Shown piece by piece: positions 26,226 to 30,581 of a stretch of 64,000 bases of DNA. Under the pieces are notes generated by a model. That model saw only the letters and a list, made by a program, of their open reading frames with translations, did not search any database and was not told the DNA's origin. Position 1 is the first letter of the stretch, and each line of letters starts with the position of its first letter. The position numbers and the translations under genes are program-made. The DNA is from Scedosporium boydii (lineage: Eukaryota; Ascomycota; Sordariomycetes; Microascales; Microascaceae). The stretch spans positions 62,001 to 126,000 of the forward strand of contig NJFT01000022.1 in assembly GCA_002221725.1 (NCBI GenBank), given 5' to 3'.

Positions 26226-26740
26226 TTAACCACCGAAACCGTAGAGGGTGCGGCCCTGGCGCTTAAGGGCATAGACAACGTCGAGAGAGGTGACGGTCTT
26301 GCGCTTGGCGTGCTCGGTGTAGGTGACGGCGTCACGGATGACACCCTCGAGGAAGGACTTGAGGACACCACGGGTCTCCTCGTAGATCATGGCAGAGATA
26401 CGCTTGACACCACCACGACGAGCGAGACGTCGGATGGCGGGCTTGGTGATACCCTGGATGTTGTCACGAAGAATCTTTCGGTGACGCTTGGCACCACCCT
26501 TGCCGAGGCCCTTGCCGCCCTTTCCGCCTGGAGAGAAATAGAGTCAGCACATGATGCTCGACGATAATAATTGAAGATGTCACGGCACGCTTGAGACGGG
26601 TTGGTCAAGGTCGTGGGGTTGAAGCCTCGTGGATGGGGCCCTCCGGTGCCACGCATCACGACGCGTCAAACCAACCCGACCGAGACGCCCCAAGCGCCGA
26701 CGCGGGGAAAGATGAGATGAAAATACTTACGTCCAGACAT
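26226..26740 (-). CDS. Histone H4
   Basis: There are two exons, 26731-26740 and 26226-26527, with a 203-nt intron that splits codon 4 (GTAAGT...CTCCAG), 103 residues, the invariant H4 length. The tail [20 protein letters not shown], the core [21 protein letters not shown] and the end TLYGFGG are standard. The tiny first exon of ten coding bases would be missed without knowing the family. H4 pairs with H3 in the nucleosome core. There is no H3 gene beside it, although H3 and H4 are often divergent neighbours in Pezizomycotina, so this may be the solitary second H4 copy. A TATTTATT element about 170 bp upstream, near 26911-26918 on the minus strand, could act as a TATA-like box. Confidence 0.97.
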
Positions 26741-28002: not shown

Positions 28003-30581
28003 TCAGTCCTCGTAGATCTCCGGTCCTGTCGGTTCACGATCTTCAAGGCCCTCGATGGCCTCCTTGATCTGCGGCGATGCCTAAAAAGGGAAGATATTTT
28101 TGTCAAATTAGTTAATCCAAGCTCCCTTTCGTGGTAGTACGTCAATGTAAATCCAAAGCTTACCTTGGGATCCAACGCCAGTGCAAATGTATAGTGGCGT
28201 ATAGCCAACCCCTTCTCATTCGTGGATTTGTACAGGTTGCCGAGTAGGAAATGAACCATTGCCTCATCGGGGGCGAGATCTCTCAAGATCATAAGCTCTT
28301 CCTTGGCCGGAACCAAGTCGCCCCTCGCGAGAAGTACCCTCGCCCTCTTGAATCTCGGCTGTGCCGCCTTGGGAGTCAGCTCCGTCGCCATGCCGTAGTA
28401 CCGAAGCGCCCTTGGCAGGTGATTCTGCTTCTCCAACATGCTTCCAATGCAACACGCCAGCACGGCATTCGTAGGATTAATGTTCGCCGCGGCGAGGTAC
28501 TGGGTGTGGGCTTTGTCGAGATTCCCCAATCTCTCGTGTACCTTCCCGATGCCATAATGAGCGTTGTAATGGCGTTTGTCTACCGAAAGAGCCCTTCGGT
28601 AGGCTCGGAGGGCCCTGTCGTAATCCTCAGTCGCCATGTATTCATGACCTTGCAGCGTGTAGGCATACGCCATATTCGGGTCCAGCTGGGCGGCCCTCTT
28701 GAAGCATTTCACGGCCTGCTCGTGCTCTTCAGACTTTGACCAGGCATTGCCGAGAGCACACTACGCTTGTGGTGAGTGCCAGGATAAATCAATTAGCTCG
28801 TGGGCGAGGAAGGATAGGTCCGTTTCACGGTTCAGGTGCCAGAGGACTGTCGAGTACAAGTCCATGTCTTGATGTCGCGTCGGGGCCGCTGCTTTTAATT
28901 TTCGAAATACCTTCTCTGCATCTGCGTAGGCAGCCCGCTCAAAGTGTGTCCGTCCCATTTGTGCCAGTACCCAGGGGGTTTCTTGATGAGCCCGGGGCAA
29001 CCGCTCAAAGGCTTTAAGAGCATCCGCGCAGTCGAATTTTGAAAGATGGTAGTGCCCGATAGCCATGACTTCCAGCAGGTTCATAATGTTCTTGAGGGCA
29101 ATGTTTGTTTTCGACGAGTTCTTGTCGCTATACTTGAGTGAGGTCGTTCTAGTGGGCCTGATTTCGGGGTAGGAGCTGCCGTTTCCGAGAAGGGGATCTG
29201 GGCTCTCCGTTTCGATTTGGGTCTCGGGTACACCACTGACGGCAGTTCGATCTATTCTCGAGGTTTTAGGCCTCTGACCAGCAATTCCTAATGTCCGTAA
29301 TGCGAGGCGCCTAGCCCGCTTCGCTGCCCTCGTCTCCGGCGGACTGGAAGCCTGGGAGACTCCGTTATTATGGTCAGTACCACTAGTCGTAGATGGATGT
29401 GTCATGTCCCTAGGATGGGCACCGGCCCCATCTTGCTGCGCCTGCGGTTCATTACTCTGCGACGAGTTGGACTGCGCCAGAAGTGTTGACAGCGTTCTCT
29501 TCCGCTCTCTAACCAGTACCGGCGCAGTCGCGGCTCCTCTGTGGGGTTCTAACCCCTGGCTTTCACCTTGCTGCCTTCTCCCCAGTCTAAATGTTCGGGA
29601 AGCTTCAGATCTAGAAGCCAGTGGCGAGTCGACAACTTCTCTCGAACCTAGGCCTACCGTATGGGGTCGAGTCCTGCCGTCTAGACCTTGGGCAGTCCCA
29701 GGGCGGACCAGTCTCGTGAATTGTTCCCCCATTTCAGATCTGCGCGTTGGTGAAGCATCTCGGTCCCGCCATCGGCCTCTACTGGCTGATGTGACTAGAT
29801 TCGATGTCAAACTGGTTTCTGGCGTCGTCGGTGGGCGGCTACTCTGACTACCGGCTCCCGATGCTATTGAGGCTTGGAAATGACTAAATGCGTCGTTGCC
29901 GTTTATCGGTCCAGAAGCAAGTGCCTTCCGCGACGGTGGATCAGGCTTGTTTGTGACGGGCCTATTGGATGAGTCTTTCGTTCCCGCCCCTACTCCTCCC
30001 AGATCAAAGATCTGAGTTATTGTGTCTGAGAGCTTATAGATGTTTGGTACGTTGACAGTCGTACCCATGGCACAGAGGGCAGTGAAGGCATCCCACATCA
30101 ACGGATTTAGTTTGAGTGCGGCGTCGAAGGTCTCACTAGCCATTGCTGTGTCACCGTATCCAAGATGTAACTTGCCTAGGAGGCACAAGACCGCCGCTGC
30201 ATCTGGAAACGGGCTCCTTATAGTAGTCCCATGCTTGCCCATGTTCGATGTCTGATGCCAGAGCACCTTGCACTTGTTCAGGACAAGTATGCCTTCCCTG
30301 TATCTCTTCAACCGGAGACACGACTGGGCGTAGACCCAAGAACAGCCGAGATGGCTCCCCTTCAACGCAACAATCTTGGCTACTTCAAACGCCGAATGGA
30401 AGTCTCCGAGTCTAAAGTGACAGAGGGCGAGGAGATAAGCTGAACCAGGAGCCTTGGAATCTTGGGCAAGGAGTCGCTCGGCGAAGAAGAGGGCATTGTC
30501 GTATGAGTAATTGTCGAGGTGATAATGGATCACACGGCGAAGTATGCTGCCAGTTGTAGCATTGGTGTTTGGCGGTGACAT
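28003..30581 (-). CDS. CDC27: APC/C subunit Apc3/Cdc27, with an in-frame UAG at a conserved Trp codon
   Basis: There are two exons, 28164-30581 and 28003-28080, with an 83-nt intron (GTAAGC...TTTTAG). The start MSPPNTNATTGSILRRVIHYHLDN is the usual Cdc27 beginning. Residues 1-200 form N-terminal TPRs, 200-460 are disordered and Ser/Arg-rich, and 470-830 form the C-terminal TPR superhelix ending ALDPKASPQIKEAIEGLED. The reading frame is broken once: codon 607 (28761-28763) is TAG between SPQA and CALGNAW, where the family has Trp (TGG). Conserved sequence resumes at the next codon and no splice fits. Read through, the product is 831 residues; if terminated it is 606 and lacks most of the C-terminal TPRs that bind Cdc20/Cdh1 and APC/C partners. 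I infer either A-to-I mRNA recoding, a nonsense allele or a sequence error. It is divergent from SND2. Confidence 0.88.
28757..28771 (-). promoter_or_regulatory. Candidate A-to-I editing hairpin around the CDC27 UAG
   Basis: On the mRNA strand CACA and UGUG can pair, leaving a seven-base loop AGCGUAG that contains the UAG. The candidate edited A is at plus-strand position 28762. Known fungal editing sites prefer U at -1, often G at +1, and an A in a hairpin loop; this site fits all three. The stem is short, so the structure is only suggestive. Confidence 0.35.

What the first reader, a model, noticed from the sequence alone, without database searches (positions are those of the whole stretch)
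28761..28763. In-frame UAG at a conserved Trp codon of CDC27/APC3: possible A-to-I mRNA recoding
Seen: the frame reads SPQA-stop-CALGNAW, with conserved Cdc27 sequence running up to the stop and resuming at the next codon. There is no other stop in about 830 codons and no GT...AG pair that would remove it. Known: Fusarium, Neurospora and Sordaria edit A to I in mRNAs during sexual reproduction without ADARs, favour U at -1 and loop positions, and repair UAG to UGG in some genes (PUK1; the meiotic APC activator AMA1 in Fusarium). Here UAG to UIG would restore exactly the family Trp, and CACA/UGUG can form a hairpin with the A in its loop. Inference: full-length APC3 may be made only where editing occurs, implying a sexual-stage isoform or a second intact copy for mitosis.
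Basis: partly seen in the sequence, partly recalled or inferred. Interest (0 to 1): 0.9.

Follow-up and report, generated by a model that had tools for sequence, protein, structure and literature searches.

The report
Stop-interrupted CDC27 repaired by RNA editing
In a mould closely related to Scedosporium, one of two genes for the cell-division protein CDC27 carries a stop signal in place of a near-invariant tryptophan; the sequence behind the stop is still conserved, so RNA editing during the sexual stage likely repairs the message, while the second, uninterrupted CDC27 gene would serve ordinary growth.

Summary
Minus-strand CDC27/APC3 reads 606 codons, one TAG (28763-28761), then 224 conserved codons. 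The column is Trp in 267 of 279 aligned CDC27 rows. It is not a private allele: a relative's protein ends at the same residue (P0002), and the Scedosporium apiospermum model resumes exactly behind it (P0003); behind the stop 222 of 224 residues match S. apiospermum. Five more Microascaceae-type records begin 17-42 residues downstream. The genome holds a second, uninterrupted CDC27 with TGG. Trees show an A/B duplication; only in Microascaceae is A the faster copy. Tad2-, Tad3- and Ame1-like genes are present, and a RID-like gene, whose Fusarium counterparts need stop-correcting editing, has its own in-frame TAG. Best reading: a conserved premature-stop-correction (A-to-I) gene. No stage-resolved RNA was available. 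New gene and new family for a known kind of editing.

The parts
28764..30581 (-). CDC27A (APC3) coding sequence before the stop, 606 codons from ATG
   Evidence: PF12895 match
28761..28763 (-). in-frame TAG at the family Trp codon (yeast W543, human W570); candidate A-to-I site is 28762
28164..28760 (-). coding sequence behind the stop, 199 codons (C-terminal TPRs)
28081..28163 (-). ordinary 83-nt intron
   Evidence: position shared by other Sordariomycetes
28003..28080 (-). last exon, 25 codons and TGA
28761..28910 (-). 150-nt in-frame GT...AG stretch whose AG is that of the TAG; treated as an intron in the S. apiospermum model, judged a model artefact
28755..28767 (-). predicted 4-bp hairpin with a 5-nt loop holding the A (weak, flank-dependent)

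Best explanation
This is one of two CDC27/APC3 genes (copy A) of a Scedosporium-like fungus, interrupted by a UAG at a near-invariant Trp codon, and the UAG is likely recoded to Trp by A-to-I editing of the mRNA (premature stop correction), predicted to be done by the Tad2-Tad3-Ame1 complex mainly in the sexual stage. Shown: the stop, a relative's record ending at the same residue, the constraint on the sequence behind the stop, the uninterrupted paralogue B, and genes resembling the editing enzymes. Inferred: that editing happens and when, that full-length A joins a sexual-stage APC/C, and that B carries the vegetative APC/C. Unedited, the protein would end after 606 residues and lack the C-terminal TPRs (from recall, the part of APC3 that docks the co-activator's C-terminal tail).
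For: Trp in 267 of 279 rows at the stop column, and UAG differs from the Trp codon only by the A that this editing changes. P0002 (93% identical, 606 aa) ends at the same residue and P0003 of S. apiospermum resumes right behind it on a junction ending in AG, which implies TAG there too. 222 of 224 residues behind the stop match S. apiospermum against 187 of 200 in the N-terminal TPRs; the 49 residues before the stop are 49/49 in P0002. Of 38 proteins found with the post-stop piece, all five that group with Microascaceae A start downstream of the stop, against 2 of the other 33. Flanks -1 U, +1 G, +3 G are the preferred ones (PMC9600606 section 6). Tad2-like, Tad3-like and MV-bearing Ame1-like genes in the genome. 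A RID-like methyltransferase with one in-frame TAG; Fusarium rid genes need PSC editing (PMC7306014 passage). Uninterrupted CDC27B, and A/B rates exchanged only here.
Against: No RNA from any known stage, and no DNA of a relative, was seen. -2 G and +4 U are disfavoured bases. The hairpin is no better than for a third of the window's TAGs and depends on the flank. The only Microascaceae A row with Trp, P0004, looks like a transcript, which fits editing, but a genomic TGG in that species is not excluded. The stops of the Microascus-type records are inferred from where the records start. The Ame1 assignment rests on a two-residue motif whose offset differs by one from the published numbering.
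Confidence: 0.78

Rival explanations
1. Alternative splicing: the 150-nt GT...AG stretch ending in the TAG is removed as an in-frame intron, giving a CDC27A of 781 residues without editing, alone or beside editing as reported for FgBUD14.
For: The GT and AG exist and the stretch is a multiple of three; the S. apiospermum annotation uses it; both routes coexist in FgBUD14 (PMC11156358 part 2).
Against: It removes 49 residues that are 49/49 conserved in P0002 and aligned in other CDC27s; donor GTATTT is unlike the donors read here (GTAAGC, GTAAGT, GTATGC, GTGAGG); the transcript-like P0004 keeps the 49 residues; automated models are known to invent such introns around PSC sites (PMC4817773 passages).
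Confidence: 0.07
2. Programmed or leaky ribosomal readthrough of the UAG makes a small amount of full-length CDC27A at all stages.
For: Would also explain the constraint behind the stop.
Against: The bases after the stop (UGU GCU) are not one of the readthrough contexts I recall (CUA, CARYYA; from memory, no call); readthrough gives no reason for UAG at a Trp codon. A UAG-reading tRNA was not searched for.
Confidence: 0.08
3. CDC27A is a pseudogene or lives on as a 606-residue truncated protein, the essential function having moved to CDC27B.
For: An intact paralogue exists and A evolves fast in Microascaceae.
Against: 222 of 224 residues behind the stop match S. apiospermum, better than before it; a single stop in 831 codons.
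Confidence: 0.04
4. Sequencing error or a private nonsense allele.
For: One base separates TAG from TGG.
Against: A 93% identical relative ends at the same residue, and S. apiospermum resumes right behind it.
Confidence: 0.03

Closest known systems
PUK1 and the PUK1-like premature-stop-correction (PSC) genes of Fusarium graminearum (PMC4817773)
   Same: In-frame UAG in a conserved domain, UGG restores Trp; automated annotation invents an intron around the stop; the gene looks like a pseudogene in the genome.
   Different: Editing was observed there and not here; CDC27 is a core cell-cycle subunit with a diverged paralogue.
FgAMA1, meiotic APC activator with PSC editing (PMC11156358, PMC4817773)
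   Same: An APC/C component behind a UAG.
   Different: AMA1 is a meiosis-specific activator; CDC27 is a structural subunit of the complex.
FgRID and F. verticillioides rid (PMC7306014 passage)
   Same: PSC editing in related species; a RID-like gene with one in-frame TAG is in this genome.
   Different: Different gene; its orthology here was not tested by a tree.
CHE1 of F. graminearum (PMC11169179, abstract and outline)
   Same: PSC site conserved across related species.
   Different: Edited in hyphae; a transcription factor whose deletion had no detectable phenotype.

Membership tests
PSC-edited genes of Sordariomycetes | single in-frame UAG in an otherwise open, conserved coding sequence | tested here: met
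PSC-edited genes of Sordariomycetes | UGG at the stop would give the family residue | tested here: met
   Trp in 267 of 279 rows
PSC-edited genes of Sordariomycetes | preferred flanking bases | tested here: inconclusive
   -1, +1 and +3 preferred, +2 neutral, -2 and +4 disfavoured
PSC-edited genes of Sordariomycetes | edited A in a hairpin loop | tested here: inconclusive
   flank-dependent; 394 of 1235 window TAGs the same at flank 30
PSC-edited genes of Sordariomycetes | sequence behind the stop under constraint, stop shared with relatives | tested here: met
   222/224 and records ending or resuming at the site; DNA of relatives not available
PSC-edited genes of Sordariomycetes | genome encodes Tad2, Tad3 and an Ame1 of the editing type | tested here: met
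   by motif only:
PSC-edited genes of Sordariomycetes | A-to-G in sexual-stage cDNA, absent from hyphae | not testable with these tools
   no RNA reads; P0004 is suggestive only
CDC27/APC3 (BimA, Nuc2) | N-terminal ANAPC3 domain and C-terminal TPR array alignable to solved Cdc27 | tested here: met
   2.4e-24; yeast 544-742, human 571-769
CDC27/APC3 (BimA, Nuc2) | part of the APC/C | not testable with these tools
   needs biochemistry
Pseudogene | relaxed constraint behind the stop | tested here: not met

The most novel reading that the evidence does not exclude
Microascaceae have split the anaphase-promoting complex in two: an old paralogue, CDC27B, has taken over the vegetative APC/C, while the ancestral CDC27A, locked by a UAG in the genome through much of the family's history, is opened only by A-to-I editing to build a sexual-stage APC/C. 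The two copies have swapped roles relative to other Sordariomycetes, and the transcript-like record P0004 is an edited message already sitting in public data.
Probability: 0.35. Interest if true: 0.78.

Novelty: new member of a known kind. Interest (0 to 1): 0.62.

Why it matters
The PSC genes described in the papers I saw act in sexual development or are dispensable for growth. Here the interrupted gene is a cell-cycle subunit conserved from yeast to human, the break is shared by at least two further Scedosporium-type records and probably by Microascus, and a diverged paralogue can cover for it. That gives a concrete test of how a lethal-looking stop becomes fixed: duplication first, role shift, then dependence on editing. 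It would also carry stop-correcting editing to Microascaceae (Scedosporium with A-to-I editing: no paper in the held library), and it warns that a public gene model (SAPIO_CDS7716) leaves out 49 conserved residues.

Tried and rejected
Private allele or error: rejected by P0002 and P0003. Intron: possible on paper, rejected as the main route (see rivals). Pseudogene: rejected by 222/224. Hairpin as evidence: dropped after the control. A third CDC27: the C327 hit is a 660-aa TPR frame that I took for another APC/C subunit by eye; C117, C103 and C16 were not followed up. The TAG inside the Tad2-like match is by eye an intron acceptor. Kinases with exactly one TAG: 8 rows, 7 read; C22 and C167 look like introns by eye, the other five were not resolved, and no clear PUK1 was found. 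Slower B in Microascaceae: seen on the 847- and 450-column trees, not on the short C-terminal tree, where only the faster A is seen. The second Fisher test used 269 others where 270 is right; I do not rely on it.

Papers: CDC27 + A-to-I + premature stop codon + Fusarium 0; anaphase-promoting complex + A-to-I + perithecia 0; Scedosporium + A-to-I + RNA editing 0; CDC27 + A-to-I + fungi 0; three of CDC27 / paralog / Fusarium graminearum / RNA editing: 19 papers, and of the 15 listed one held CDC27, once.

Full report
What is there. On the minus strand an ATG at 30581 opens a 606-codon frame that ends in TAG at 28763-28761. The same frame runs on for 199 codons to a normal 83-nt intron (28163-28081) and 25 more codons to TGA at 28005-28003. 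The product is CDC27/APC3: its N-terminal part matches PF12895, and the piece behind the stop aligns over its whole length with yeast Cdc27 544-742 and human CDC27 571-769, which puts the stop on yeast W543 and human W570 (alignments). In 279 aligned CDC27 rows (277 database proteins listed, plus this genome's two genes) the column is Trp in 267, Val in 1, Leu in 1, X in the window gene and gap in 9. Searches found 278 and 437 proteins but listed 120 each, so the rows are the best-scoring part.

Whose genome. The window's assembly is 42.9 Mb in 442 contigs. The nearest named protein is S. apiospermum SAPIO_CDS7716, so the organism is a Scedosporium or close relative in Microascaceae (lineage), but not that strain: 187 of 200 identical in the N-terminal TPRs.

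The stop is not private. P0002, a record from metagenome-type sources 93% identical over the whole length, is exactly 606 residues and ends at SPQA. P0003 of S. apiospermum drops 49 residues and resumes at CALGNAW: its model splices from a GT 150 nt upstream to the AG of the stop codon. Since the codon ends in AG and was avoided, it is likely TAG there too. Inventing introns around such stops is what is described for PUK1-like genes in Fusarium (PMC4817773, passages). Behind the stop 222 of 224 residues match S. apiospermum, against 187 of 200 in the N-terminal TPRs (Fisher p 0.0025, treating residues as independent).

Wider in the family. A search with the post-stop piece gave 38 proteins. 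Five group with Microascaceae copy A: P0242 (99% identical), P0256 (Thermomyces stellatus, in the taxonomy Microascus stellatus), P0257, P0258 and P0264. All five begin 17 to 42 residues downstream of the stop position; of the other 33, two lack the column. I take this as a stop in the same stretch, but the codon was not read and an intron there is not excluded. The only Microascaceae A row with Trp is P0004. Of the 47 rows from metagenome-type sources only, 8 of the 9 on contigs under 4 kb have the conserved last intron removed, P0004 (3271 bp) among them, and 0 of the 38 on longer contigs (36 read into the intron, P0002 ends at the UAG, P0110 is unclear, completing the 37 rows). P0004 therefore looks like a transcript, and its Trp is either edited RNA or a genomic TGG; the data cannot say which. 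Its first ~70 residues are missing for a reason I do not know.

A second CDC27. The genome carries another CDC27 on contig C5: four introns, 737 residues, no internal stop, TGG at the critical codon. It belongs to a second clade (B) with members in Neonectria, Fusarium, Xylaria, Beauveria and others. In trees of 50 rows B separates from A plus outgroups with full support; the root, and so the age of the duplication, is not resolved. On 450 well-filled columns the root-to-tip length of A over that of B is 3.24 in the window's genome and 0.29-0.65 in six other lineages (for Xylaria, Beauveria and one Fusarium group A and B come from different species). A is thus the slow copy elsewhere and the fast copy here. 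The short C-terminal tree shows the fast A but not a slow B. The simplest inference is a role exchange: B likely took over the constant duty and A was freed for a restricted one.

Mechanism. Fungal A-to-I editing prefers U at -1 and purines at +1 and +3 and turns UAG into UGG (PMC9600606 sections 6-7; PMC11156358 parts 1-2 of 3). The site has -1 U, +1 G, +3 G; -2 G and +4 U are disfavoured. The fold puts the A in a 5-nt loop at 30-nt flanks, but 394 of 1235 TAGs in the window lie in hairpin loops too and several other flanks differ, so I give it no weight. The genome has a Tad2-like deaminase with HAE and PCVMC, a Tad3-like one lacking the catalytic Glu, and three DUF726 genes, one with MV 30 residues before the catalytic Ser; MV in place of KN is what PMC11087585 (passages) ties to the gain of editing in Sordariomycetes. 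I did not align to FgAme1 itself, and the offset differs by one from the published numbering.

A second candidate of the same kind. A cytosine methyltransferase on C52 has one TAG in a 739-aa frame. Aligned to DNMT1 the stop sits without a gap at a Tyr, with all six flanking bases of the preferred kind; its A is unpaired but not in a hairpin loop in the 30-nt-flank fold. F. graminearum and F. verticillioides rid homologues are reported to need stop correction (PMC7306014, passage). That it is the RID orthologue is likely but was not tested by a tree.

What is known and what is new. Stop-correcting editing is established, with PUK1 and 70 more genes in F. graminearum including the APC activator AMA1 (PMC11156358). 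In the held library no paper joined CDC27 with A-to-I editing in fungi, or Scedosporium with A-to-I editing; supplementary lists were not open to me. The finding is a new member of a known kind, in a core subunit and a new family, with a paralogue history that makes its evolution testable.

What remains open. No stage-resolved RNA, no DNA of relatives, no expression. The editing step, its stage, the fate of the 606-residue form and the division of labour with CDC27B are inferred.

Noticed in passing
L042 (G000:C52:199500-204500, minus), TAG within C52:201821-202357: RID-like cytosine methyltransferase with a single in-frame TAG in a 739-aa frame, where DNMT1 has Tyr; flanks all of the kind preferred by fungal A-to-I editing.
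   Followed up: partly
L044 (G000:C105:21500-26000, minus): Cdc20/Cdh1/Ama1-type activator with a C-box (DRFIPQR) has an in-frame TAG upstream of the C-box; it may lie before the true start or in an intron. FgAMA1 is a PSC gene.
   Followed up: partly
L050 (G000:C44:91500-95500, plus), within C44:92684-93205: WD40-repeat gene with a single TAG where the repeat consensus has Trp (TIGI-stop-DTSTG).
   Followed up: no
L011 (G000:C5:86500-93500) and database rows: A second CDC27 paralogue (B) occurs in many Sordariomycetes, usually faster evolving than CDC27A; I found no paper on it in the searches run.
   Followed up: partly
P0129 (Parascedosporium putredinis CDC27B): A stretch after GHEHFEAEEYG departs from all other B rows, as from a wrong splice or frame in that gene model.
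   Followed up: no
window 26226-26543, minus: Histone H4 coding sequence, with an intron near its start, lies downstream of CDC27A.
   Followed up: no
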